64,000 nucleotides of DNA from Falciphora oryzae. Taxonomy: Eukaryota > Ascomycota > Sordariomycetes > Magnaporthales > Magnaporthaceae. Of this stretch, positions 9,010 to 33,288 are shown piece after piece. The DNA is taken from assembly GCA_000733355.1 (NCBI GenBank), contig JNVV01000007.1, positions 1,094,771-1,158,770 of the forward strand, read 5' to 3'. A program made the position numbers and the translations under genes. The notes under the pieces are model-generated. The model was given only the letters and a program-made list of their open reading frames with translations. It ran no database searches and was not told the origin of the DNA. The number at the start of each line of letters is the position of its first letter. Position 1 is the first letter of the stretch.

Positions 9010-10160
9010 ATGGACGGCAAAAGGCATCTCAACTCGTTCCAGCAGCTGGAGAAGCTGGGTGAGGGCACATATGCTACCGTAAGATCCAATTCTCCCAGGC
9101 TCCGGGACAGAAGCTGGGCGGGGAACCCAGCCACGTTTGGGTTTCGCTAACCGTTTTTCTCTTTGTCGCACAGGTCTTCAAGGGCCGCAACAGGCACACG
9201 GGAGAGCTGGTCGCGCTCAAGGAGATCCACCTCGACTCGGAGGAGGGCACCCCCTCGACCGCGATCCGCGAGATTTCGCTGATGAAGGAGCTCAAGCACG
9301 AGAACATTGTCGCGCTGCACGATGTTATCCACACCGAGAACAAGCTGATGCTCGTGTTTGAGCACATGGACGGCGATCTCAAGAAGTACATGGACACCAA
9401 GGGTGACAGGGGCGCCCTGCAGCCCATGGTGATCAAGTCCTTCATGTATCAGCTCCTCAAGGGCATTGACTTCTGCCACCAGAACAGGGTTCTGCACCGC
9501 GACCTCAAGCCCCAGAACCTGCTCATCAACAACAAGGGCTCGCTCAAGCTCGGCGACTTTGGCCTGGCCCGCGCCTTTGGCATCCCCGTTAATACCTTCT
9601 CAAACGAGGTCGTCACGCTCTGGTACCGCGCCCCCGACGTGCTGCTGGGCAGCAGGACCTACAACACCAGCATCGACATCTGGTCCGCCGGCTGCATCAT
9701 GGCCGAGATGTACACGGGCCGCCCGCTGTTCCCCGGCACCACCAACGAGGACCAGATCGTGCGCATCTTCCGCATCATGGGCACCCCTTCGGAGCGCACC
9801 TGGCCGGGCTTCTCGCAGTTCCCCGAGTACAAGAAGACGTTCCACACGTACGCGACCCAGGACCTGCGCCAGATCCTGCCGCAGATCGACGCCGCGGGCA
9901 TCGACCTGCTCGGCCGCATGCTGCAGCTGAGGCCCGAGATGCGCATCAGCGCTCACGACGCGCTCAAGCACCCCTGGTTCAACGACCTCATCATGCAGCA
10001 CCACCAGCAGCAACAGCAGCAGCAACAGCAACAGCAGCAGCAGCAACAAATGCAGCAGGCTGCCCAGGCGCAGGCTCAGCAGGGCCGCGCTGCCGCCCCT
10101 GCTGGCGGCCAGTACCCGCAAGCCGTGCCTTCACAGGCCCAGCCTTACGACAACTACTAG
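9010..10160 (+). CDS. PHO85: Pho85-type cyclin-dependent kinase
   Basis: Ser/Thr kinase of the Pho85/PhoA group, which with Pho80-like cyclins controls phosphate response, carbon metabolism and morphogenesis. Two exons, 9010-9078 and 9174-10160, give 351 residues. Visible motifs are the glycine loop GEGTYATV, catalytic K39, the cyclin-binding helix PSTAIRE at residues 50-56, HRDLKPQN with catalytic D133, DFG at D151, and an activation segment with [12 protein letters not shown]. The start [20 protein letters not shown] matches the family start, so I chose the first ATG rather than a non-ATG extension. The C terminus carries a long glutamine tract (about residues 280-297, mixed CAG/CAA codons) and an Ala/Gln-rich tail absent from the kinase fold. 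Family assignment is strong. The function in this species follows from the family. Confidence 0.95.
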
Positions 10161-11594: not shown

Positions 11595-14500
11595 CTAATT
11601 TCGATACGTATTTTCCAGCGCCACCGATAAAGTCTCGCAGAACTGGCTCCTCTGCCTCCTCCTAGTCTCCGCTGGCGACACATTGTCATCCACATCCAAA
11701 AACTGACTCCACGGCACCAAGCAGCGGAGCCCGCCGTCCAGTCCCCTGTTGCATAGAGCCTCGAAGACCGCGCTCATGCCCTCTACGCGTCTCAGCCACG
11801 TGCGGTTCCTGATCTTGTCGCGCACATCCTGGTGTTGTGAGAAGTCCAGCAGCCGCCCGGCGATGCCCGCGGCGATGACGGCCGAGTAGCTCGTCCCGGA
11901 CAACAGGTCCGGCACGTTGGGCAGGCGGACACCCTGGCCAATGATGGCGAAGCTGTTGCCATGGACCTTGGGAGGGCTGGGGTTGAACTCGACGAGCGAA
12001 GCCTTACACCCAGGCGTGGTGGCGTACATGCAAAACAGCTTGCCGGCCGAGTGCAGGTTCCCGGGGAACGTTACGCCCCTGAGGCCCGAGTTGTTCGAAG
12101 CCGCGGCAAACACGAGAACGTCCTTCTGCTCGGCGCGCGATATGGCCTCCCTGACGCAGTCGTGCTCCTCGTAGAAGCCCGAGGGAATCACGATGATGTC
12201 GACATCCCATGTAAAGCAAGCGTGCTTGATGGCGTTGGCCATGCGTGTGGGGGTTTCCTCCGTATAGTCGCCGCCTTTGTCCCAAACCCGGCCGACGTGG
12301 ATTTCGGCGTCGGCGTACACGTACGCTAGCAGTCGAGCCGCGTTGGTGCCGTGATTGGTGCCGCCACGGACGCCGGTGCTGTCCTGGCAAGAGGAGTGGT
12401 TTCCGTCGACGAAGTCATGGTACTCCTTCAAGTAGACAGTGCCCTGCAGGCTCGAGTCGATTCCAGTGTCGATTATGGCGATTCGGGACGGGCGTGCTGA
12501 TGCGTCCCTGTCTCGAGGTTTGATGCGCAGGGCTGCGCTGAATTGTTGTAAATGTTCGAACCACTGCTCGGAGTTGAATCCGCCGTCCCTGGGCCGGGTT
12601 GTCAGCTTGAAACAAGACAGGAAGCACGACAGGAAATAGAGGGGAAAAAGGAACAAGAAAAAAAGGAAATAGACCAGGAAATGGAAAATAAAATGGGACA
12701 CGAGACGGGATAGGAGGGAGAACAAGAACAGAACAGGAAATAGGACAGGACGCTTGACAGAGTACAGGACGGAGACGCATACCCTACAGCAGCTGTTTGT
12801 CCATGTTTCGGACCGGTCTTTTTCGAAGCTATGTGTTTCGAGAGAGTGACTGGCAGTGCAGCAGGTTCGAGGAACGACACCTCAGCCCTGTCTTTTGATG
12901 CCAAGTGTTGGGGAAAAGCATCCGGTGGCTTGAAATTCTCCCTCGGGATGCCTCTGACGGCGGAGACCGTCCAGGTGGCCTCCCACAACACTCGAAGTGG
13001 GGTCACGATCTTCTCGTGGATAGCATCTCTCATTTCATGCTCGCGCGTTGTCAAGAACTGCGGTTTCAAGCACAGCTTGATCACGTCTCTCAGAATTGGA
13101 TAGGTACCATCTGTACCATTTGCCTGGGACCAGGTTTCTTCTTTTTCGGACAGCCTGAGGGCAACGAGGTGATCTGCATTGATCGCTGGCTTTCCTAAGG
13201 GATCAAAGAATTCGGGAGTATAGTGATCCTTAAGGCGAATCCCGAGCTCAACCTCCATCATCATGATGCCGAGCGCAAGCAGCTTTGGAAACCTGTGCGT
13301 CCGCAGTTCCTGGTGGTCGGTGCGGTGCGTAGGGTCTTCGTGGGCAAAACGAACAAGCAGCAAGGGATCGTCGACATAAATCCCCAGCTTCTGGGCCTTG
13401 GGCTGCTGGAACATGAAGTGGACGACGTCGTTTGTCCAGACCTGGCGCATCCAGTCCGAATCGTAGAACTGCCATACAGCCTTGGCCAGCTCATAGCAGA
13501 GGCGCAGCCTCGGCATTGGCGTCAGCGGGGGTGCGCTGCGGAGCACATACGCCAATGAAAGGCTTGGTAACTGAAGGGCATAAGTCCGCTCCGGCAGCCT
13601 GACACCCTGGCAGATCAGGGAGCCGTTGAATATCTCGAGTTCCAGTCGACCGAGAGGTCGCTCTGAGATAAAGTTGCAGAACTCGGAAACCTCCAGAACA
13701 GGGCCCGTCTGACTGACAGCACTCGGTTCGTTCTCGCCGAGCCTTACCTTTTTTTGGCGGGATACTTGGATGATGGTGTCTTGCCACTGGCCGCAATTTA
13801 CCGCATGGTGATCGTGCGGATGATCCAGGAACAGCAGGTCGAAATTCGCCGTGTCGCCCTCGTGCTCGATACTGCATCCATCGCTGTTAAGCCTCAAGTT
13901 CGCCGAGATTGTAGTCCCTGCGTTGTCTCCTCGTGCACATACGCAATGTCGCGACAGCACGGAATGTAGTATTTTGATGTGCGCTTGGTAGTCGATCGCT
14001 TCGATTTTGCTTTCGTCTATTTTGACATCGTTGAGATCTGGGTTGGGGGGATCCTCGAGCCCCGCTAAAGTCTTGAGGGCTCGATGGAGCTTGCGCTGTG
14101 CTTTGCTCCCGTGCGGCGCGCAGAGTTTCTGAATGCTCTTTTCGACGGCGAGCTTGCCTGTCCGAATGTCCCTGAGGCCTCGATATGAGTCGAGATCGAG
14201 CCCGCGCGGGTCTCGAGAGGGTTTGCTCTGTGGGTTACGAGACCGAACGGGCCGTTGGCCCCCCTTCACTGGAGCATTAGTGGGACCTGATTCCCACGCG
14301 GCGTTGCCCGCCCGTGCGAGCAGCATCCAACTTGACATGAACTCCAATGATCCGCTACGGAGCCCGCCCGGTCGGGTGCGCCCTTGACGTACCTGAACAA
14401 GCGCATCCAGGTGATGGAGAAGCTTAGGAAGGTCTCCTTTGAGATGGCCATCCTGAAGCCGATTGTGCAAGGGAACTAGCACCTCCTCGAGGGTGAGGCA

Positions 14501-14620
14501 CCAGGCCTTCAAGCCCTTCGTGCCCTTCGTGCTCTCCCTGGACCGAAGCTCCAGGACCTCTTTCCGTATCTTGGCCACCACCTTAAGCGCAAAGGCGGTA
14601 GCCTCTTCGGAATTGTCCAT
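11595..14620 (-). CDS. DUF7580-like domain fused to subtilisin (S8) protease
   Basis: Two exons on the minus strand, 14620-12783 and 12588-11595, join to 943 residues. The intron has a GTATGC donor, a GCTGAC branch site and a CCCAG acceptor, with matching phase 2. Residues 1-610 resemble the fungal DUF7580 / prion-inhibition type region, with AKAVWQFYDSDWM and FPKLLALGIMMMEVELG as characteristic pieces. Residues about 640-870 are a peptidase S8 domain with D653 (IIDTG), H692 (TNHGT), oxyanion Asn near 778 (AASNNSG) and S846 (SGTSYSA), so the triad is intact. There is no signal peptide, so the protein is probably cytosolic. It is divergent to a candidate gasdermin-like gene, an arrangement known for HET-Q2-type activating proteases. 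A role in programmed cell death or allorecognition is inferred from context. The start is the ATG at 14620; an upstream in-frame ATG at 14758 would add 46 basic residues. Confidence 0.85.
12589..12782 (-). other. Polypyrimidine-rich intron of the S8 protease gene
   Basis: A 194-base intron. On the minus strand it is almost all C and T for about 150 bases, with repeated CCTGTC and TTTCC words. The splice signals are a GTATGC donor, a GCTGAC branch site and a CCCAG acceptor about a dozen bases after it. Retention would shift the frame and end translation at a TGA at 12604-12602. Confidence 0.75.
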
Positions 14621-14939
14621 TTGACGGTCCGTGATGGAGAGAGCCCGGTGTAGTTGGTGTTGGGGACGTCGTTGCAAGTCATGAACAGACCAGATCGATT
14701 TGGTCGCCGTCGGGAAACGCAAACGCACGCGACGCCTACTGCGCGCAGATGAGGCCAAGAGGCGGGGCTCAGCGCACTCGAAGCAGCTCTTGGGATGTCG
14801 AGGCGTTCGGTTGCCACGTGATCAGAGCAGCCGAACTGTCCTTTAGAATCAAGGATCAAACCAACGATTGCTATTCCTCAGCGAGAGAATGCATCTGCGC
14901 TGCTGCCTCTCAATCTTCCACCCCTTATACGCCCTCACA
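14621..14939. promoter_or_regulatory. Shared bidirectional promoter of protease and gasdermin-like genes
   Basis: Only 319 bases separate the two start codons (minus-strand ATG at 14620, plus-strand ATG at 14940). Both genes must therefore share this promoter region. A CACGTG E-box lies at 14815-14820 (the centre of the interval is near 14780). The boundaries are set by the chosen start codons. Confidence 0.6.
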
Positions 14940-15994
14940 ATGCTGGAAAAGTGCTGGTTCGTGCTGAGGTCGCCCTTCCCTGCACCTAGTCTCCCGGAGC
15001 ATGGTGTCGGACGAGCCAGGGGTCCATGCTGTCCAGGGCACCTGGTCCCAAACCTCAAGGACCTCAACTTCGTCATCAACGGCCGGCCGGGCCCTACCGA
15101 GTACCCGCCGGATGCGCCGCTCTGGTCGTTGAAGAAGTTCGACTTCAACTGGAAGAAAATCGACGATGGCGCCGCATCTCTGTCCGCTAAAGCCGTAACG
15201 CCGGTCGGGGGTATCGGAGCCGAGGCTGCGATCCAGTTCCAGAAGACCGTGTCGAACTACTGGAAGTTTGACACTCTAGAGACCTTCGAGCTGCAGCTGA
15301 CTCCCACCTACCTCGAGGAATCTCTGGAGGAGTCTGTAGTCGTCGATTACATCAAGAACCACAGGTCTCCCGTCGGACTCTGGTCCATGTTCATGATCAC
15401 GGGCATTATGGTCGCCCGCGGAACAACGCGCGAGTTTTCCAGCAATAGAGAATACGGATTCAAGACAGCGACCCAGGTGTACGTAATATACCTAGGAACC
15501 TCGTACGGCGAGCTGCCGTTAACATTACCTACGCCCCAACATTTTCCCTTCTGTTTACACTTATTTTTCCTCTCCCTTTCCCCCTTCTCCCCAGCTATAT
15601 GCATCCCCTGAATATCCGAGCTAACACCGGTAACCATACCGGCTGGATCCTGAACAGCGAGACCCCCGCTTTGGGCGGCGCTGGTGGAAATACTGAGCTA
15701 CAGTTCAGATCTCAGGCAGGCGAGGATTCGAGCTACCGACAGGACGACCCGTTTGTCTGGGCCGTCAAGTTAAGAAAGATTACCAAGGGGATCTTGGATC
15801 GTAAATGGAACTCCAAGGCATTCACAAAAGGATCACAGTTTGGACTTGGCGGTGGCGCTATTCAGAAGGACGAGCAAGAGATACTGGCGCAGCTTGCTGA
15901 AGAGGGCGTTAAAAACGTCCGGCTGTTCGGATTCCGTGACAACGAGGACGGTGGCTTCGTCGTTTGGGAGGATGACGGCCTACCCCGCTCCTGA
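14940..15994 (+). CDS. Candidate fungal gasdermin-like pore-forming protein
   Basis: Two exons, 14940-15478 and 15595-15994 (GTACGT donor, CCCCAG acceptor, phase 2), give 312 residues. The ATG at 14940 sits in CACAATG, a strong fungal start context; upstream in-frame ATGs at 14868 and 14889 are weaker. Recognisable pieces are HLVPNLKDLNFVING near the N terminus, a beta-rich middle with LEESVVVDYIKNH and LWSMFMITGIMVARG, then DPFVWAVKLRKITKG. These resemble a fungal family I associate with RCD-1/HET-Q1 gasdermin-like proteins, which oligomerise in membranes after proteolytic removal of an inhibitory part. No signal peptide is seen. The divergent S8 protease neighbour is the expected partner. 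The assignment is inference from remembered sequence patterns and context; an unrelated beta-rich protein remains possible. Confidence 0.6.
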
Positions 15995-16348
15995 CCCCGC
16001 GGCCCCGAAGGCGTGAGCTGATGCTGCAGGTAGGAGGAACGCGTGCAGAGGATCAAGTGGTGAATACCTATCGAGGTACACAGTGCGACGGATAATACAA
16101 GGTAGATATGGAGGTAAATGCGAGCTCAACAAGGCTTAAGGAAATAAAGAAGAAAAAGGAAAAGAAGGAGGATTACAGAAATGCTGGGTAGACTTGTGTC
16201 ACCTGTTTTGCCGGCCAGCCGGTCGCCGCCCGCAGCATTGCATTGTATAGGTGCCCTTTCCTCCAGCCCTCGCGGGTGCTGATGCTCCCCGCACAATCAT
16301 CGACTGCGACAACTGGATGTCCGTTCGGGTCACAGCAAGCACTTCAAT
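15995..16348. promoter_or_regulatory. Spacer between gasdermin-like and ankyrin genes
   Basis: These 354 bases between two same-strand genes must hold the 3' end of the first and the promoter of the second. The part near 16140-16190 is A/G-rich. No other feature is visible. Confidence 0.5.
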
Positions 16349-19300
16349 ATGGGCGGAGCATCCGAAAACGCCGCCGTCTATCAGCAAGGCATCTCGTCTG
16401 CCCTCTTCCATGAGGGGGGGATTGGCTGGCGCACGAGGAGGTGCCAGGCACTGTTTGAGAAGTGCGCGCAGACCGAGCCACTCGCTGCGGAATGGCTGGA
16501 GAAGCGACAAGGCATGTTCAACCTCTGGTCGTTCGCGCTGAAGGCCTCGGAGGCAGGGAAGCAATCTCTTGACCACCGCGTCAGAACGAGGCCCGACATC
16601 GCGAAGCCGATCGAAGACCTTCTCGACGGGCTGCAAGAGGCGCTTGAACTGTGTTTGGAGATAGCGTGCCAGGAACAGCCTGTGGATCATCACTCTGATG
16701 ACGCAAGTGACATCGAAATGACCGACTGGAGCGAGGAAGACGAGGATTCTTCTGAGGATGACAAGGACTGGCAGGACCCCTTCGCCCAGCAAAGGCTCTA
16801 CATAACCTCAATCGTGGACCAACTTCGAAGGATTTCGATAGCAATTCGGAAGACGGGAGCCAAGTATCGATACGAAAAGGCCGACAAGGAGCTGCGCGAG
16901 GACGAATTTCAAGATTTCCGCAGCGCTTTGACCGCCACAATATTGAGGGAGCAATGGTGGCAGGCCAACAGCATGGCGCCGCTGGAAGCAGGGGACGGGG
17001 GCCAGTCGGAGGCAGAAGATGACTTTCTGTCAGACGCAGAAAGCGAGTCTCGGCCTGAAGTCAAAGATGAGCCTGCGCAGACGACGGAGCTCAACGTCCA
17101 GGCACTTTGCGAGCAGCTGCAACAGCCGTCCAAACAGCTCACAACGGTCCAGGACCGTCTCGTCCGGGCCAACATACTTCGACGACATCGCATACGGTTC
17201 TTAACGGAGCGCGCCAGAATTGTCCAGCTGGCTTCGGCAAAAACCCAGGTTCGATTTCAGAGCATACCACAGAAGCGCCATGCCGCCAGCCCTTTGCCAG
17301 CCAAGCCGGAAGAAGGGACAACACCGGCGCCCCCGAGATCCAGACAGTCGCTACCACAGGTGACTCCGCCACCTAAGCCCCCCTCACGCGAGGATGGTCA
17401 GTCTCAGGTGCAAACAGCGACGGCAATTCCCACAGAGTTCGACATCAAGCAAGTAATCAAACCCAAGTCGTCACCCTCGGCGGTAACCGTCGGCACCAGA
17501 ACGGGGGCAGGACACGAGTACCCGCGATGCCCTAAGCCTGCGGTTGACGGGCGAGAAAAGGGCATGATAAAGTGCCCATATTGCGCTGAAATACTGGCTG
17601 GAGAATACGTGCGTCATAAACAGCGCTGGAGGTAAGGGAACTAAACTTTTGATATCCTCCCCTATCCTTGCCCCTGTTATTTTNNNNNNNNNNNNNNNNN
17701 NNNNNNNNNNNNNNNNNNNNNNNNNNNNNNNNNNNNNNNNNNNNNNNNNNNNNNNNNNNNNNNNNNNNNNNNNNNNNNNNNNNNNNNNNNNNNCCAAATG
17801 CCCGGTATAAGCCCAAAGCTTACTGTTGCGATTGGAATTTTCAGGGGCCACGTCGCGCACGATCTCATACCTTACGCCTGCGTGTTCGAAGATTGCAGCA
17901 AGCCCGACGAAATGTATCCTTCTACATTCGAGCTCACTCGGCACACGATCAAAGAGCACGGAAGGACTTACTGGGTCTGCGACCGCTGCCCCATCCAGTT
18001 CTCGGGCGCAATCTCCGAGACCGCGTCGAATTGGCAGGCGCACATGAGAGCAGAGCATCCCGATTGCTTTCTGGAGACCGAGCTCCCTCTCCTCTGCAGT
18101 GCGAGCCGCCAGACCCTGATCCCTCCCGTCGCCTGCCCGCTATGCCACGCCTCGTCCGACGTGCCATCAGAGGCCTTGAACGAGCATGTGGCCGACCACC
18201 TGCACGCTTTCGCGCTACGTGCGCTCCCGTGGGATGCTGCATGCGGAGCCGAGTCGGTGTCGGATGATACTTTTCGGGGACACTTCCATAAGGGGAGAAA
18301 GCCGGAGGAGCCGAGGGTCCTCGACGCCGAATTCATACATAGATGGCGGCTCGGTATTTCCCAGCAAGAAGACCTTGATATCATTTTGGGCAAGCCGGGA
18401 GCAGATGTGGTAGCGGCTGCCGACTGGCGTGGACCGGCATCCACAGAAGCCATATCCTTGGCCCGCGCGATCGAGGAGACGATGGATGCCCTCTTTGGCC
18501 ATGATTCTGTGGGCGGGGAGTTCACCTGGTCTGTTAAGGCTCTCTGGTCTCCTGAACAGCCTGTCTACGAGTCGATACCCTTGCATGTCAAACGGAATGG
18601 CGGGAGGTGGAGAGCCTACGCCGACGAGATCGAAGCAGCGCTCTCGTTGTGGCTTTACTCCGTCGACAAGTGGGAGAACAACGTTCAAGGGGCAAAGGAA
18701 GAAGGGCTGAAACAGTCCCCAGACGATGGAAACGCCAGGGAGGCCCAAGGAAAGGACGGCGGAGAAAGGCCCAAAGACGACGCGTGGCTGCGGAAAGAGA
18801 CCCCCGCAAAGCCTAGCCTCCGGCTTCTAGGCCCGTATACGGCGGCTCTTTATCGAGACCTCCAATGGTGGATGCCTGACGGTGCCGCCAGAGTCATCGA
18901 GGTGGGTGATATTAAACCGGAAAACGACAGCAGCACAATGAAGGTGGAGGCCCATCGAATTGTTGGATTCGCGCCCGGCGTCAGGTTTCCTCCCGCAGAC
19001 ATTGACATACATCCGTACGAGCGGAAATCTCCGGAATCTCCCTGCGAAGATGCTCCCCTGGCAGTCGAATCATATAGTCCTTTGAAGACACTATACGCCC
19101 AGCACATGTTCTCCGCCTTCATGTGGGCTGCGGCGAAAAAGATGAAGCAAATCGAGGACAGAGCAGATGTACGACCTGCACGGAGAGACGGTGAAAGTGG
19201 CGATTCGACGTGGCAATCGATTGCGCTACGCAGCAGCCGGCTCTCCAAATTGGCTCAGGACATCCAAACCACCGGACTCGGAAGCCTGGAAGAAATCTAC

Positions 19301-20395
19301 CTGGCCATCATTCCCCCACTAAGTGTGCAGCAGAAGCTTCCACGAGCTGACGCGATTGTCGAGTTGGCGCGACAACATGCCAAGCAACACGAGCAGTTAC
19401 AGCATTGGAAGCAGGCTCGCGACGCATACGTGTGGCTCTTTCGAGTGGCAAAAACATTCCCGGAACAAAGTGGCATTGCCACCAAAGCTACAGCCGTGTT
19501 GATGGAATATTTAAGAACGATCACTCAAGCTTCCAAATTGAAAGAGGCTCAACAGTACTACGGAAGGGATATCGATGAGCTGAAAGAGGTGAAATCAGAT
19601 CTCGAAAAGGAGCTGGAAACTGCTTGTTCTTCGACCTTGTCAAGTTTTATGAAGCTATATAAGGACCAGGGCCGTCAGTGGGAGTGTGACCTTGTGCAAA
19701 AAACCGGGTCTGCTGGAAGTTACCCCGACACATTCAACTTTACGGAGCTGCATCAGCATGCTGGATCCGATAAATGGCCGGACCTCCAGAAGATGCAGAA
19801 GATGTTGGAAGGGGGAAGTGATGCGAATCTGAAGGACATCCACGACTGGACGCCGCTCCATTACGCCGCGGCAAAGGGATCTGCACGCGCCGCCGAAGAA
19901 CTGTTAAAACGTCGAGCTGATGCCAATGCCCGGGACCTTCTCGGATGGACACCACTATATTACGCCTGTCAAGCCGGCCAGACTGCAATCGTGCAAAATC
20001 TTCTCCGAAAAGGCGCAGAACTTGATGTGCGCGGCAGAGATGGAGTGGCGCCGCTGCACTGTGCGGCAATGAGTGGCCGTTTCGATGTGGTGAGGCAGTT
20101 GATTGAGGCAGGAGCAGCTCTTGACGTCCTGGACGCCTCGGGAACCACTCCACTACACTGGGCTGCATATAATGGGAATAAGGACGTCGTTGAATATCTA
20201 TGGCGAGACGCGAACAAAAAGCTGCGAGACCATTACGGCAGGACTGCCTTGCATCTAGCAGCGATAGCGGGAATGGCGGAAGTGGTTCAGCTGCTTAAGG
20301 GCGCCGAGAAGGAAGCGAAAGATCGCTCTGGGCGCACGCCGCTGCACCTGGCCGCGGGGAACGGGCACGAGGCCGTTGCAAGGCTTCTCAAATAA
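16349..20395 (+). CDS. NLR-like fungal protein: C2H2 fingers and ankyrin repeats
   Basis: Two exons, 16349-17631 and 17845-20395, give 1277 residues; the intron contains the assembly gap. The splice joins WR to GHVAHDLIPYACVFEDC, restoring a typical fungal finger region, so I treat the two frames as one gene. Residues about 10-100 match an N-terminal helical domain common in fungal zinc-finger/ankyrin proteins (MFNLWSFALKASEAGKQSLD). An acidic, then Gln/Pro-rich linker follows. Cys/His fingers span about 420-550 (CPYCAEIL, CDRCPIQF, CPLCHASS) and end in HVADHLHAFALRALPW. A middle region (SPLKTLYAQHMFSAFMWA) and a helical region follow, then six ankyrin repeats from about residue 1083 to the end. 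No P-loop is seen, so it is not a canonical NACHT/NB-ARC protein. The last repeat ends abruptly. Its place beside the protease/gasdermin-like pair suggests a sensor role, which is unproven. Confidence 0.8.
17684..17793. other. Assembly gap (110 N) inside an intron
   Basis: A run of 110 N lies in the intron between GTAAGG at 17632 and TTTCAG ending at 17844. If the gap size is right the intron is 213 bases. The true length is unknown, and a repeat or low-complexity tract may have prevented assembly. Confidence 0.95.
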
Positions 20396-27388: not shown

Positions 27389-29452
27389 ACACTAAGAAAA
27401 TGAGGCATCTCTTCCTCTTGAACGATGCTCCTATATCTCCCCGAGGGACGCGCCTCCCACCCACCGAGACGTATCCTTGTACAAGACCTTACGAATTGTT
27501 TTTATATCATACACCTACGCCAAGACATTCAGAGGCATAGCTTTCTCTTCTGGTTTCTTTTTATACCTTGTCGTTGGTCTCAAAATCACCGAAAATCACA
27601 GTTTTCTCATCTCATAATTTTCGCGTTTGCTGGGGCTCGGTGGCGGCAGAATAATCGGGCTCCCAAGCTTACTTGCGCGCGAGGCCGCGCAACTTGTTTC
27701 TCCTTTTTTCTCGGTATCAGGGCTGCGAACGCTGGGCACAAATTCTTCTTTCCTTTTTTTTTCTCGTCTCGTTGCATTGTAAAAACAACTCCTAGCTTAT
27801 TCCCCACGCGGCTTTCGTCTGGAGTACAAGGCGCACTCTGGCGACTCGATTGGTCTTTGCACCCTTTGGATCTGCATCACTTTGGACGGACCCCCTGGGA
27901 CCTTTTGTTTGGTTGGCTGGGGGCGGGCCCTTGTGGGTTGTAAATATACATACGGGCAACTCCGCACAAAAGTTGCTTCCGGGGCGGGTTTAGATTTTTT
28001 TTTTTTTTTTTTTTTTCCTTGCCCTTTCACCGGTGGTTCTAGAACCAGATCCAGGTAGCCTATAAAAGGCGGATAAACAGCCCTATTCCTCGCCACCTGA
28101 GGCTACGTGGAAGTGATTTGAGCGCCCGACTTGACTCTTGACAAGCAAGTCGGGCAGTTTTCGTGATTTTGGCATGGTTGGCTACAGACGCGCAGGAGCC
28201 CGACTCGCTGTTTTTTTTTTCCCCTGTCGACAAACGGGCGGAATTCCTCAGCCACGTATCTTGTCTGGCCGGGCGCCCTTGACGGGGGTTCCAGTGGCTC
28301 GGCCGATTCCGAATAGGGGTTGGCTGATGGCGATGAGTTGTCTCTGCCGCTAGTGCGTGATCACGGCGGCAGGGTTAGCCAACCGCTTTTTGGCAGGCTT
28401 GGTGTTTCGTTTTCTTTGCTTTTGCTTTCTTTTTTTTGTCCTTCCCGTCCCTTATTTTTTTTTTTCCTCATTCCATTTGAATCCATGCTAGACGCATGCT
28501 ACGCGCCTCCAATCCCTACCTAGATTGAACAACGCGCCGACCCAGTTTAAAAACCAGTTTTGTCTTCTGTGTCAGGGTCAATCACGAAAATGCGTCGTTC
28601 AACGGAAACCCGTCGCGGCACATTGACAGAAGCGGGCTAGCCCAGCTGCTCGGGTTCATTGTTTTGCGGGGAGCTTCTGGCGGGCCGTCACCCAGACTCG
28701 GCTGTTCCCAAAAAGTCTTGGAAGACGGCGAAGTTAGGGGACCCGAGCTAGGTTCTCATGCGGGCAGCTCCTTGTGCTACGGGATGACGTCAACGTGTCG
28801 TCCAATGGGGCTATCTACTGCGTGCGTCTTCACCAGCCAGCCAGCCAGCCTGCCAGCCGGTCAGGGCGCTTGACACCTTGCATGGCATGGATGATGTATC
28901 ACCTCTCCTCTCGCTGCCCGACGATGCGTTGTTCCTGTCGACAAGAAAAAAAAAGTGGCCTGTGGGCTTTTTTTGGAAATGCACTCTGCGAACTGTGTAT
29001 TAAACCCCGTTCAGCTTCGCTCCTGCATGCGTCTCGTTTCTACTAGCCGGCCCCTTTCTTCTCTCCTCTCTTTCTCTCTTCATCTTTTAATTCGGCGTGT
29101 CACCTGAGGAGACAACAGTAGTCCATCCACCAGACCGTCGCTGAACGTTTGGTCTGCTCCGAGATCTCTAGCCGCATACTTGGTCTGTTTAGTTGTCTTG
29201 ACATTCTATCCCTACAGAGAAGACACTCCACAACACCAAGGGAGAAGAAGCCGTCCGTCTTTTAAGCGACAATTGCGTCACACCATCAAGACAAGAAAAA
29301 GAAAGGGAGACACAAAAAGACACAAAAAAGGGACACGCCATCGTGCTCCGACACCGGGCAACTGGCCTGCGTTTCTGCCGCTAGCTACCCGGGCAGAACA
29401 AAACACAACCCACATCAAAAGAAACCGACCGCACACACAGAAACACACAAAC
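27389..29452. other. Intergenic: promoter region of the carrier gene
   Basis: About 2 kb with no supported gene. It holds several long T runs (27995-28016 is 22 bases), a short CCAG tandem near 28833-28858, and an A-rich leader from about 29240 to 29452. Confidence 0.5.
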
Positions 29453-31513
29453 ATGTCATCGGGCGGCATCCTCCCCGCCCTGGGCCACGCGGCCTCGGGC
29501 TCCCTCGGCGCAGCCATAGCGACGGCCGCGACGTACCCGCTCGACCTGATCAACACGCGACTCAAGGTCCAGCGGCAGCTCGCCCGCGACGGCGGCGCCG
29601 GCGACGCCTACGACGGCGCGGTCGACGCGCTGCGGCGGATCCTGCGCGACGAGGGGGGGCCCTCGGCCCTGTTCGTCGGCCTGGCCTCGGACGTGGCCAA
29701 GTCGGCGGCCGACTCGTTCCTCTTCTTCCTCTTCTACTCGTGGCTGCGCTCGCACCGCCTCGCCGCCCGCGCCGGCCGCAAAGGGGGCAGGGGAGGCGCC
29801 GCCAAGAACCTCAGGAGCGTCGAGGAGCTGCTGGTCGGCGCCGTCGCGGGCGCGTGCGCCAGGGCCCTGACCATGCCCGTGGCCAACGCCGTCGCGCGCA
29901 TGCAGGCCGCGGCGTTGGCGGCGGACCGGTGGGACGCCAGGAAGGGCCTCGTCGGCGAGCTGCGCGACCTGTGGGAGGAGAACGGCGTCAAGGGCCTCTG
30001 GGCTGGCTACTCGGCCGCCCTGGTCCTGACCCTGAACCCCAGCATCACATTCTGCCTGGACCAGACGATCCGGGGCGCCGCTGCGGGCGGTGGTAAGCCC
30101 CGAGGGGGCGGTCGTGGTGGTGGTGGTGGCGGCGGCGGAGGAGGAGGTGGAGGAGGGGACCTCGGCGGGTTCGCGACGTTCCTCAGTGCGGCTGTGAGCA
30201 AGGCCGCCGCCACTGCCCTCACATACCCGTTCCAGATCGCCAAGGCGCGACTGCAGGTGTCGACCATGATGGCGTCGCCGGCGGTGCCGAGGGCGCCGTC
30301 GCCGCCGCCGCCGCCGCCGCCCCTGCGGCCGTTCATCCCGCCCGTCATCATAGAGCCCGCGCCGTCGCCCGAGCCCGAGAGCAGGAGGGCGAGGGCGGAC
30401 GATGCGCCCAGGCAGCCGGCCGACCTGATCGACGTCAACGGGGGCGACGCGGCACCGGCGGCTAGGCAGGACGACAGGGACGAGGTGGAGTCGAACCACA
30501 GCCACATCAGCCACATCAGCCACATGACGGCCGAGGACGGGATGACGGGGCGCGGGCTCGGGCTCGGGATCAGGAACAACGTCTTCCACACCCCGATGAT
30601 CGGCTCGCCACAGGAGGACGCGGTGGAAGAGGTCAAGGAGGCCGTGGCGTCGGCGGCCCAGACCGTCGGGGCCGGCGTCAAGAGCATCGCCCACGACAAC
30701 ATCTTCACCATGCTGGTGCACATCTCCAAGAGCGAGGGCCCGGGCGCCCTGTACGACGGGCTGGCCGGCGAGCTGCTCAGGGCCTTCTTCAGCCACGGCA
30801 TCACGATGCTGTCCAAGGACCTGCTGCACAGGCTGGTCGTGCGCCTGTACTTTGGCCTCGTGGCCGTCTGGAGGACCGTCAACGGCGGGCAGCGGCCGCA
30901 GACTGGTCAGCACGCGCGAGACCAGGCAACGCGGGACGATGCATTGCTCGCATCCTTTGGTTCGGACCCGTACGCGCAGCCATCATCATCATCGCACAAT
31001 CCGTTTGGCAATGCTGCCCCCAGAGGACGTGGCGCCGCCAGCTCTTCGGGACGTTATCCCACGAGCTATGAAGACCGAGAGCCTGCTGGCTATGGAGGAG
31101 GAAGAGGAGGCCCGGCTTATTACGATAGGCGAGGCGGCCCGGCTGGCTATGACGACTATGATGGCTCGGGCGGCTATGGAGGTGGTCCGGGTAGTTACGG
31201 AGGTGGCCGGAGTGGTTACGATGGCCGGAGCGGTTACGGCGCAGAAGATGGCCGGAGCGGTTATGGTGCAGAAGAGCCAACCGGCTACAGGGGCAGAGCC
31301 CCCGCCGGATACCCGCCCTACCGTGACGACGCTAGGTCGCAACACAGTGTTCAGCCCGCCCAAGAGGAGAGCCGGGGGTTTTTCGGGTTTGGCAAGGCGA
31401 AGCCAAAGCCCACATCGACAACACCAGCTCGCAATGTGGTAAAAGAAGTGACCGAGGTCTTCTTGACGAACATGCTGGATAGTAGCCATCGCATGATCAA
31501 GGACAGGTCGTAG
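29453..31513 (+). CDS. Mitochondrial-carrier-family protein, peroxisomal Ant1/PMP47-like, with large extensions
   Basis: A 686-residue single-exon gene starting at CAAACATGTC. Carrier repeats are visible: repeat 1 has TYPLDLINTRLKVQ (about residues 27-40), repeat 2 TMPVANAVARMQ (degenerate), then LTLNPSITF as in peroxisomal ATP/AMP carriers, and repeat 3 TYPFQIAKARLQV. Usual carriers have 300-350 residues. Here repeat 3 is split by an insertion of about 150 residues (Pro- and Asp/Glu-rich, with a SHISHISHM repeat). A glycine run of about 14 residues sits in the loop before repeat 3. A tail of about 200 residues is Gly/Tyr/Arg-rich (SGYDGRSGYGAEDGRSGYGA). Family membership is clear. The substrate (adenine nucleotides, peroxisomal membrane) is an inference from the LNP motif and degenerate signatures. 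The tail resembles low-complexity phase-separating sequences. Confidence 0.82.
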   Translation: MSSGGILPALGHAASGSLGAAIATAATYPLDLINTRLKVQRQLARDGGAGDAYDGAVDALRRILRDEGGPSALFVGLASDVAKSAADSFLFFLFYSWLRSHRLAARAGRKGGRGGAAKNLRSVEELLVGAVAGACARALTMPVANAVARMQAAALAADRWDARKGLVGELRDLWEENGVKGLWAGYSAALVLTLNPSITFCLDQTIRGAAAGGGKPRGGGRGGGGGGGGGGGGGGDLGGFATFLSAAVSKAAATALTYPFQIAKARLQVSTMMASPAVPRAPSPPPPPPPLRPFIPPVIIEPAPSPEPESRRARADDAPRQPADLIDVNGGDAAPAARQDDRDEVESNHSHISHISHMTAEDGMTGRGLGLGIRNNVFHTPMIGSPQEDAVEEVKEAVASAAQTVGAGVKSIAHDNIFTMLVHISKSEGPGALYDGLAGELLRAFFSHGITMLSKDLLHRLVVRLYFGLVAVWRTVNGGQRPQTGQHARDQATRDDALLASFGSDPYAQPSSSSHNPFGNAAPRGRGAASSSGRYPTSYEDREPAGYGGGRGGPAYYDRRGGPAGYDDYDGSGGYGGGPGSYGGGRSGYDGRSGYGAEDGRSGYGAEEPTGYRGRAPAGYPPYRDDARSQHSVQPAQEESRGFFGFGKAKPKPTSTTPARNVVKEVTEVFLTNMLDSSHRMIKDRS

Positions 31514-31656: not shown

Positions 31657-32930
31657 TCAGCACTGAAATGCCACGCCAAGCTTTTTGACCTGGTTCACGC
31701 CGCCGGCCGAGAAGCCTGTGCCTTCGCTCCGGAGCTCGACGAGCCCCGGTGCGATCTTGTCTTTTTTGTGCTTCTCCGACGACGACCGGGATTTCCTCTC
31801 GGTCACGTCGGCGTCGCACACGAAGCAGCGGACCTGGTTCGGGTCGGCTTCGGGGGCGTGCGGGTCTATTTTGCCCGATGGCGTCATGAACTGCGCGACG
31901 CACGACTTGCACAGGACGTGGCCGCACGGCTTGGCCAGCACGGCCTTGGAGCTGTTGGACAGCGCCTTCCTGCAGGCCGGACATATCCTCTGCCGCGCCG
32001 CCGCCGACGAGGAGCCGCCCTTGGCGCCTTCTTCTGGGCTATCCTCGGTGAAGTGGATGGTCGTCAGCGAGTGCAGCGACAGCGGGTGCGGGCTGCCCTC
32101 CTTGGAGCTCGGGCAGACGGGCTCCTTCTTGACGGCCTTCTTGACCTCGTGCAGCACGTTGTGCTGGTTCGACGTCGGCGTCACTGTTGGAGCCCAGAAC
32201 GACGGCAGCGTGGGCTTGGCCGCCTTTTCGCTGTCGATGGTCCTGCGCGCCTTGGCCCGGTCCTCGGCCGCGATGCGCGCCACCTCCTCCTCGTCCAGCT
32301 CGAAGGCTCGCTTTTTCGACGAGCCGCTGCCGTCCTGGCTGCTGTCCAGCAGCGCCTTGGGTGCCCCCTGTGCCGTCCTCGAGCCGTCTGCCGCGCCCTG
32401 TAATAATGATGCTGCTGCTGCTGCCGACGTCCCAGCCCCCGCAGCAGACGACAATCCCCTTTTGTCCCCGCCGCCGTCCCTGCCGCCCTTTGGCGCGGAG
32501 ACGTCGAAGCCGGCCTGGACGAGCTCGAACTCCCTGACGGCGCGGTCGTGGGCCTCCTGCTCGCTCAAGCTGTGCGCCTGCGCGCTCTCCCTCTCCGCGT
32601 CGAGGCGGGCACGCTCGGCGCGCTTGATCTCCTTCTTCTGGGCCAGGATGTTGCTGAGGGCGCACTCGCGGCAGAAGATGTCGCCGTAGGTGCAGGCGAC
32701 GGGCTCGACGGCGGCCTCGAGGCAGAGCGAGCACGAGGCGAAGGGCAGGAAGGACTCGCGCGACAGGCGCGCCGACGAGGCGCCCCAGGCGGCTTTTGCC
32801 TGCGACCGCTCGTGCGACGTGAAGACGGCCCTGCTGGTGTTCCTTTTGCCTGTCAAGACGGGTGGGTCAGATGTGTATTTTCGAGAGGTAGAAGCTTTCA
32901 GATTTGAGAGAGGGACGTACTGTGGGACAT
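31657..32930 (-). CDS. NOSIP-type RING/U-box ubiquitin ligase
   Basis: Two exons, 32930-32921 and 32849-31657, give 400 residues. The first coding exon is only 10 bases (ATG TCC CAC A) with a GTACGT donor, and joining yields MSHSKRNTSRAVFTSHERSQ, the classic NOSIP-family start. An N-terminal half-RING/U-box (CSLCLEAAVEPVACTYGDIF, then CRECALSNIL) is followed by a coiled KKEIKRAERARLDAERES stretch, a disordered middle, and a C-terminal RING (CPACRKAL, CGHVLCKSC, CFVCDADV). NOSIP proteins are ubiquitin ligases also found in spliceosomes; the role in fungi is poorly defined. The gene is convergent to the carrier gene (143 bases apart) and divergent to TAZ1. Confidence 0.9.
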
Positions 32931-33288
32931 CTTGGGGACTCGGACGGGTCGCCGAGGAGAAAGCGCTCGTGGCGTAGCAGGTTTGACAGCTCCGGGTAAT
33001 CTGGTGATGGTGGTTGGGAGCTTTTGGAGAGCTTGCGGCGCGTTGGGCTGCGCGATGAAATGGGTTCAATGATGAAGTCACTCCTGCGCTGTTCCGAGGC
33101 GGGAGGTACGCGACCAATTGACCCCAGCCAGCAAGTGGGGCCGCTAATTGGCCGCTCACTCCCCTGAGCTGGCGGAATGGCGCCGTCAGCCGTGCGATTT
33201 TTGCAGCCAAGAAAAAACCACAGCTTATTTCGAGACTCATGGGACATCACCGTCAGGACACCTGCGTCGGCAGCAAGACAGGTGCACC
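32931..33288. promoter_or_regulatory. Bidirectional promoter between NOSIP-type gene and TAZ1
   Basis: 358 bases separate the two divergent start codons, so both genes must be driven from here. No specific operator is recognised. Confidence 0.6.

What the first reader, a model, noticed from the sequence alone, without database searches (positions are those of the whole stretch)
11595..15994. Head-to-head S8 protease and candidate gasdermin-like gene: possible cell-death module
Seen: two divergent two-exon genes share about 320 bp. One encodes a DUF7580-like region fused to a subtilisin domain with intact D653, H692 and S846. The other encodes a 312-residue beta-rich protein with MITGIMVARG and FVWAVKLRKITKG-type pieces. 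Known: fungal gasdermin-like proteins (RCD-1, HET-Q1) trigger death, and in Podospora HET-Q1 is cleaved and activated by the neighbouring subtilisin-like HET-Q2; such gene pairing is common in fungi. Inference: this is a protease-activated pore system controlling regulated death or allorecognition, with the DUF7580-like region as sensor or regulator.
Basis: partly seen in the sequence, partly recalled or inferred. Interest (0 to 1): 0.88.

Follow-up and report, generated by a model that had tools for sequence, protein, structure and literature searches.

The report
Fungal protease–gasdermin cell-death gene pair
Two neighbouring fungal genes encode a pore-forming gasdermin-type protein and a subtilisin-type protease that probably switches it on, a known kind of fungal cell-suicide pair, here with a protease that carries a dead-kinase-like control domain.

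Summary
At 11595-15994 two divergent two-exon genes lie 319 bp apart. The minus-strand gene encodes 943 aa: DUF7580 (E 7e-15) and S8 (E 4.7e-7) with D653/H692/S846 intact. The plus-strand gene is a fungal gasdermin: RCD-1 match E 1.7e-26, by profile 1e-65; the better model has 291 aa, not 312. The pairing is not chance: of 17 DUF7580-S8 loci found in this genome 16 have a gasdermin-like neighbour (15 without a profile search); none was seen at 10 DUF7580 loci with no S8 detected. Endocarpon, Oidiodendron and Gaeumannomyces relatives carry consecutive or near-consecutive locus tags. The gasdermin has a 61-aa C-terminal tail, the kind of piece that HET-Q1 loses; RCD-1 lacks it. DUF7580 models as a kinase fold without HRD or DFG. 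Correction: het-Q1 and het-Q2 are idiomorphs, not neighbours (PMC12881547). A new member of a published kind (fGSDM plus Q2L protease). Cleavage, pore formation and trigger are inferred.

The parts
12783..14620 (-). Protease gene exon 1: residues 1-612 plus two bases of the next codon; N-terminal mostly helical region (about 1-190) and DUF7580 kinase-like domain (211-551)
12589..12782 (-). Protease gene intron (GTATGC..CAG, 194 bp)
   Evidence: no transcript evidence
11595..12588 (-). Protease gene exon 2: S8 (subtilisin-type) domain with D653, H692, S846, and the stop codon TAG
14621..14939 (.). 319-bp shared 5' region between the two start codons, presumably a two-way promoter
   Evidence: promoter function is inference (the sigma-70-type scan does not apply to fungi)
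14940..15478 (+). Gasdermin-like gene exon 1 (KCWFVL start, MITGIMVARG core motif)
15479..15657 (+).
   Evidence: agreement with M. poae P0001
15658..15994 (+). Gasdermin-like gene exon 2: strand FVWAVKLRKITKG and, after the conserved W, a 61-residue C-terminal tail (candidate inhibitory piece)

Best explanation
A receptor-type protease paired with its own gasdermin (an fGSDM / HET-Q2-like two-gene death module). At rest the gasdermin is held inactive by its roughly 60-residue C-terminal tail, and the S8 protease by its N-terminal helical and DUF7580 (pseudokinase-like) regions. An unknown cue releases the protease, which cuts the linker just after the pore domain; the freed N-terminal domain oligomerises in the membrane and lyses the cell compartment. 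Shown by sequence: both protein families, the intact catalytic triad, the tail, the pairing. Inferred: inhibition by DUF7580, cleavage, pore formation, the cue.
For: RCD-1 homology E 1.7e-26, profile 1e-65; triad intact, and 13 of 17 protease homologues match all three triad patterns. In the own genome 16 of 17 detected DUF7580-S8 loci have a gasdermin-like gene beside them (15 of 17 without the profile search); none was seen at 10 over-cut-off DUF7580 loci with no S8 detected. 18 of 19 gasdermin loci found by four single-protein genome searches lie within about 4 kb of an S8 match; leaving out the four query loci, three of which were picked beside proteases, 14 of 15. Consecutive locus tags: Endocarpon pusillum GJ744_004803/004804, Oidiodendron maius OIDMADRAFT_170236/170237; G. 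tritici RB598_004373/004371 on contigs of one length. Tail 61 aa, median 58 in 46 rows, as HET-Q1 loses about 5 kDa, likely cut at F238 (PMC12881547 passage) of 278 aa (PMC10989679 passage).
Against: No expression, cleavage or death data. The gasdermin model (orthologue P0001) has mean pLDDT 53. One DUF7580-S8 locus (C9) has no gasdermin found in 331.0-341.0 kb and one gasdermin fragment (C70) has no protease found in 8 kb. The head-to-head order is the only one among the 16 DUF7580-S8 pairs here (8 convergent, 7 tandem), so the order is not conserved among them. Three gasdermins pair with an S8 for which no DUF7580 was detected, so DUF7580 is not essential to the scheme.
Confidence: 0.85

Rival explanations
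1. An allorecognition (heterokaryon incompatibility) locus of the HET-Q1/HET-Q2 or RCD-1 kind, in which different strains carry incompatible versions and death follows cell fusion.
For: The two fGSDM systems described in the reviews that I saw are incompatibility systems (PMC12881547 passages).
Against: het-Q1 and het-Q2 are idiomorphs; here both genes coexist in one haplotype and the protease carries about 640 residues before its S8 domain (943 aa against 388 aa for HET-Q2, PMC10989679 passage), which suggests a controlled receptor. The window gasdermin keeps a tail that RCD-1 lacks. No second strain could be compared.
Confidence: 0.15
2. The protease and the gasdermin are co-inherited, but the protease acts on other substrates, or the gasdermin works in secretion or membrane remodelling rather than death.
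For: [quoted passage not shown] one orphan of each type was found here.
Against: The near one-to-one pairing whatever the orientation, and the conserved tail.
Confidence: 0.08
3. A decayed or non-expressed copy of such a module.
For: No transcript evidence; the S8 Pfam score is modest (29.8 bits against a cut-off of 21.8).
Against: Open frames, canonical splice sites, intact triad; 51% identity over 100% of the protease with G. hyphopodioides and 59% over 98% of the gasdermin with M. poae.
Confidence: 0.05

Closest known systems
RCD-1-1 / RCD-1-2 gasdermins, Neurospora crassa (PDB 8jyx, 8jyy, 8jyz)
   Same: Same pore-domain family by sequence over almost the whole length of RCD-1
   Different: RCD-1 has no long C-terminal tail (at most 19 and 9 residues after the conserved W, read) and works by two antagonistic alleles, not by a protease (PMC12881547 passage). 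In the tree RCD-1 nests among tail-bearing relatives (99/96 with Orbilia P0064/P0072), in another branch than the window protein; RCD-1-2 is a long, less safely placed row
HET-Q1 / HET-Q2, Podospora anserina (PDB 9uv9 for HET-Q1 pores)
   Same: Gasdermin with a short C-terminal piece removed by an S8 protease (passages); distant sequence match to HET-Q1 (E 2.4e-4)
   Different: het-Q1 and het-Q2 are idiomorphs; HET-Q2 has 388 aa, too short for the roughly 640-residue arm seen here
Q2L (HET-Q2-like) multidomain S8 proteases clustered with fGSDM genes
   Same: Two-gene cluster of an fGSDM with a multidomain S8 protease; about 63% of fGSDM genes lie with S8 genes (PMC10197012 section 15); fusion of the protease to other predicted kinase-like domains is mentioned (PMC12881547 passage)
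   Different: The partners stressed in what I read are ANK, TPR, WD40 or NLR parts; DUF7580 by name was found in 0 papers of the library. The paper that lists the 18 architectures (Clave et al. 2022) was not held, so this architecture may be listed there

Membership tests
Fungal gasdermin (fGSDM) | Sequence homology to the pore domain of known fGSDMs | tested here: met
   RCD-1-1 E 1.7e-26; profile 1e-65; HET-Q1 2.4e-4
Fungal gasdermin (fGSDM) | Gasdermin fold | tested here: met
   AF2 of orthologue P0001 (mean pLDDT 53): 14 of 14 hits at E<=0.001 are RCD-1 chains; the window protein itself was not modelled
Fungal gasdermin (fGSDM) | Short C-terminal tail beyond the pore domain | tested here: met
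   61 residues after the conserved W, median 58 in 46 rows
Fungal gasdermin (fGSDM) | Pore formation and cell death after removal of the tail | not testable with these tools
   needs expression
Q2L protease | S8 domain with intact catalytic triad | tested here: met
   PF00082 E 4.7e-7; D653, H692, S846
Q2L protease | Gene next to an fGSDM gene | tested here: met
   319 bp apart; so are 16 of 17 detected loci of this architecture in the genome, the window's included
Q2L protease | Cleaves its gasdermin | not testable with these tools
   no experiment
HET-Q1/HET-Q2-type incompatibility pair | The two genes are idiomorphs, so not together in one genome | tested here: not met
   both genes lie in the same genome, 319 bp apart; other strains not seen
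NLR receptor | NACHT or NB-ARC domain in the protease protein | tested here: not met
   Pfam lists only DUF7580 and S8 at E<=1; residues 1-190 remain unidentified
Pseudokinase (DUF7580 part) | Protein-kinase-like fold | tested here: met
Pseudokinase (DUF7580 part) | Loss of the HRD and DFG catalytic motifs | tested here: met
   neither motif at the corresponding places in 17 of 17 aligned rows; the correspondence was judged by eye

The most novel reading that the evidence does not exclude
DUF7580 is a pseudokinase switch: a degenerate kinase domain, whose model matches BRAF, RIPK1 and the IRAK3 pseudokinase among others, that senses a partner or ligand and releases a fused subtilisin, which then fires a gasdermin. 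That would join a necroptosis-style control domain and a pyroptosis-style executor in one fungal module, present as 16 pairs found in this genome.
Probability: 0.4. Interest if true: 0.6.

Novelty: new member of a known kind. Interest (0 to 1): 0.38.

Why it matters
What stimuli activate the protease receptors of fungal gasdermins is called a major open question in print (PMC12881547 passages). This family gives a tractable case: a two-gene unit, a domain of unknown function that looks like a dead kinase, and 16 pairs in one genome to compare. The tree also fits the view that tail-less RCD-1 came from a tail-bearing, perhaps protease-controlled gasdermin.

Tried and rejected
Chance or mis-annotation: rejected by E-values and pairing. 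Secreted digestive subtilisin: set aside because the window protease matches DUF7580-S8 proteins over its whole length; no signal-peptide tool was run. Bacterial defence models: PADLOC gave 0 families for P0001 and P0012 at E<=0.01. The bacterial-type promoter/terminator scan says nothing about a fungus. The PDB search with the whole protease profile showed only subtilisin-type proteases in the 60 rows shown of 148, so it could not test DUF7580; no domain-only profile was run. The N-terminal helical region (about 1-190) was not identified. The main paper (Clave et al. 2022, PMC8851545) is not held and was not read; what I say of it comes from reviews. Searches for gasdermin with Magnaporthe and with Gaeumannomyces listed no paper whose title concerns gasdermins of these fungi (listings only). 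That DUF7580 is unmentioned in print rests alone.

Counts and dropped rows. Tail count: the window plus 45 of 83 candidate proteins, those over 235 aa; P0002, P0005 and P0007-P0011 were left out beforehand; 42 of the 46 rows have W in the reference column; P0004 (partial, 13) and P0107 (165, probably misaligned) are the extremes. Genome counts: 16 of the 17 DUF7580-S8 loci follow alone; the S8 part at C58 94 kb was seen only by profile. The C31 gasdermin scores E 0.0125 by single protein and 1.3e-5 by profile and runs into an assembly gap, so 15 of 17 hold at E<=1e-3 by whole-genome single-protein search and 16 of 17 with the profile. The second profile (gsdm2) was trained on hits in the same stretches, so its E-values flatter them. 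For the DUF7580 loci with no S8 detected only about 1.5 kb on each side was at hand, besides the genome searches. Triad patterns: 13 of 17 homologues match all three; P0024 and P0025 have the His in a variant context (read), P0019 is annotated without the S8 part, P0026 did not match and its sequence was not read.

Full report
What is there. The window is part of a 50.2-Mb, 123-contig assembly; the closest relatives, in Magnaporthiopsis and Gaeumannomyces, suggest Magnaporthaceae, which is inference. On the plus strand, 319 bp away between start codons, a two-exon gene encodes a protein with no Pfam hit that matches N. crassa RCD-1-1 in the PDB at E 1.7e-26 and RCD-1-2 at 2.3e-20. A profile of 12 relatives hits RCD-1-1 at 1e-65 and the HET-Q1 pore chain at 2.4e-4. 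The alignment with M. poae P0001 moves the intron's 3' end from 15594 to 15657, giving 291 aa.

Pairing in the own genome. Family and profile searches found 17 loci where DUF7580 and S8 lie together. Sixteen have a gasdermin-like gene within about 2.5 kb: the window pair (divergent); C58 102, 113 and 119 kb, C12, C17 82 kb, C98, C2 52 kb and C40 (convergent, 8); C58 90 kb, C17 571 kb, C27, C31, C2 43 kb, C15 and C41 (tandem, 7). C9 had none in 331.0-341.0 kb. At the 10 over-cut-off DUF7580 loci with no S8 detected (C67, C55, C32, C15 463 kb, C58 70 kb, C37, C20, C9 988 kb, C51, C11) no gasdermin was found by the genome searches or in the 1.5 kb held on each side. Four single-protein whole-genome searches gave 19 gasdermin loci at E<=1e-3; 18 have an S8 match within about 4 kb, and the C70 fragment has none found in 8 kb. 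Three of the four queries were themselves taken from beside proteases; without the four query loci the figure is 14 of 15. Three of the 18 (C17 545 kb, C52, C4) pair with an S8 that matches the same protease profile but with no DUF7580 detected. So the gasdermin goes with the protease, and DUF7580 is one of its regulatory arms. The tool warns that counts of large families are lower bounds, so these totals are not a census.

Pairing elsewhere. Protease and gasdermin relatives carry consecutive tags in Endocarpon pusillum (GJ744_004804/004803; Eurotiomycetes) and Oidiodendron maius (OIDMADRAFT_170237/170236; Leotiomycetes), and tags two apart in Gaeumannomyces tritici (RB598_004371/004373; Sordariomycetes), each pair with one contig length; in Coniochaeta ligniaria two members share a contig length but not neighbouring numbers. 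Adjacency is read from tags and contig lengths; the DNA of these genomes was not seen.

Tail and relation to RCD-1. After the conserved W the window protein runs on for 61 residues; the median in 46 rows is 58, often with a KGATF-like linker, a stretch with EGL, and a final strand such as FVV. RCD-1-1 and RCD-1-2 end within 19 and 9 residues (read). HET-Q1 loses about 5 kDa, likely cut at F238 of 278 aa (PMC12881547 and PMC10989679, passages). In a 53-row tree RCD-1 sits inside tail-bearing relatives (99/96 with P0064/P0072, 100/97 with P0091, P0095, P0096), while the window protein groups with P0001 (100/100) and, more weakly (82/78), with a set that holds the Endocarpon and Oidiodendron proteins. 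The tree flags RCD-1-2 and several own-genome paralogues as long rows, whose place is unsure. Loss of the tail on the RCD-1 line is the simplest reading, and agrees with the pseudogenisation model in PMC10197012 (passage).

Reading and literature. PMC10197012 section 15 (read whole) reports about 1900 fGSDMs in 400 genomes, about 80% clustered with genes of protease-bearing activators (63% S8, 19% CHAT), and 18 architectures of Q2L proteases. [quoted passage not shown] The find is therefore a well-supported member of a published kind. What this work adds is modest: the corrected gene model, the probable pseudokinase nature of DUF7580, the number of such pairs found in one genome, and a head-to-head order that is the only one among 16. 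Because both genes lie in one haplotype and the protease has a long N-terminal arm, a conditionally activated receptor fits better than a HET-Q-type incompatibility pair; strain data would decide.

Noticed in passing
window 16283-20395 (+): Long open frames with ankyrin repeats in the second part, starting about 300 bp after the gasdermin stop, same strand, interrupted by a run of N in the assembly in the 17-18 kb stretch; whether they belong to the module is unknown.
   Followed up: partly
own genome C58:90000-124200 (loci L011, L012, L014, L024, L033, L043, L048, L052): Four DUF7580-S8 plus gasdermin pairs within about 35 kb, a local island of such modules.
   Followed up: partly
own genome C70:13560-14148 (L061) and C9:334300-336300 (L044, L058, L060): An orphan gasdermin fragment with no protease found nearby, and an orphan DUF7580-S8 protease with no gasdermin found nearby.
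   Followed up: partly
own genome C67, C55, C32, C15:463 kb, C58:70 kb, C37, C20, C9:988 kb, C51, C11: DUF7580 also occurs at ten over-cut-off loci with no S8 detected; what it is joined to there was not examined.
   Followed up: no
window 9063-10157, 29108-31510, 31660-33246: Surroundings include a protein kinase, a mitochondrial carrier and a NOSIP/RING-type protein, so the pair sits among ordinary genes; seven of the ten further long frames scanned had no Pfam match at E<=0.001 or are unexplained strands of them.
   Followed up: no
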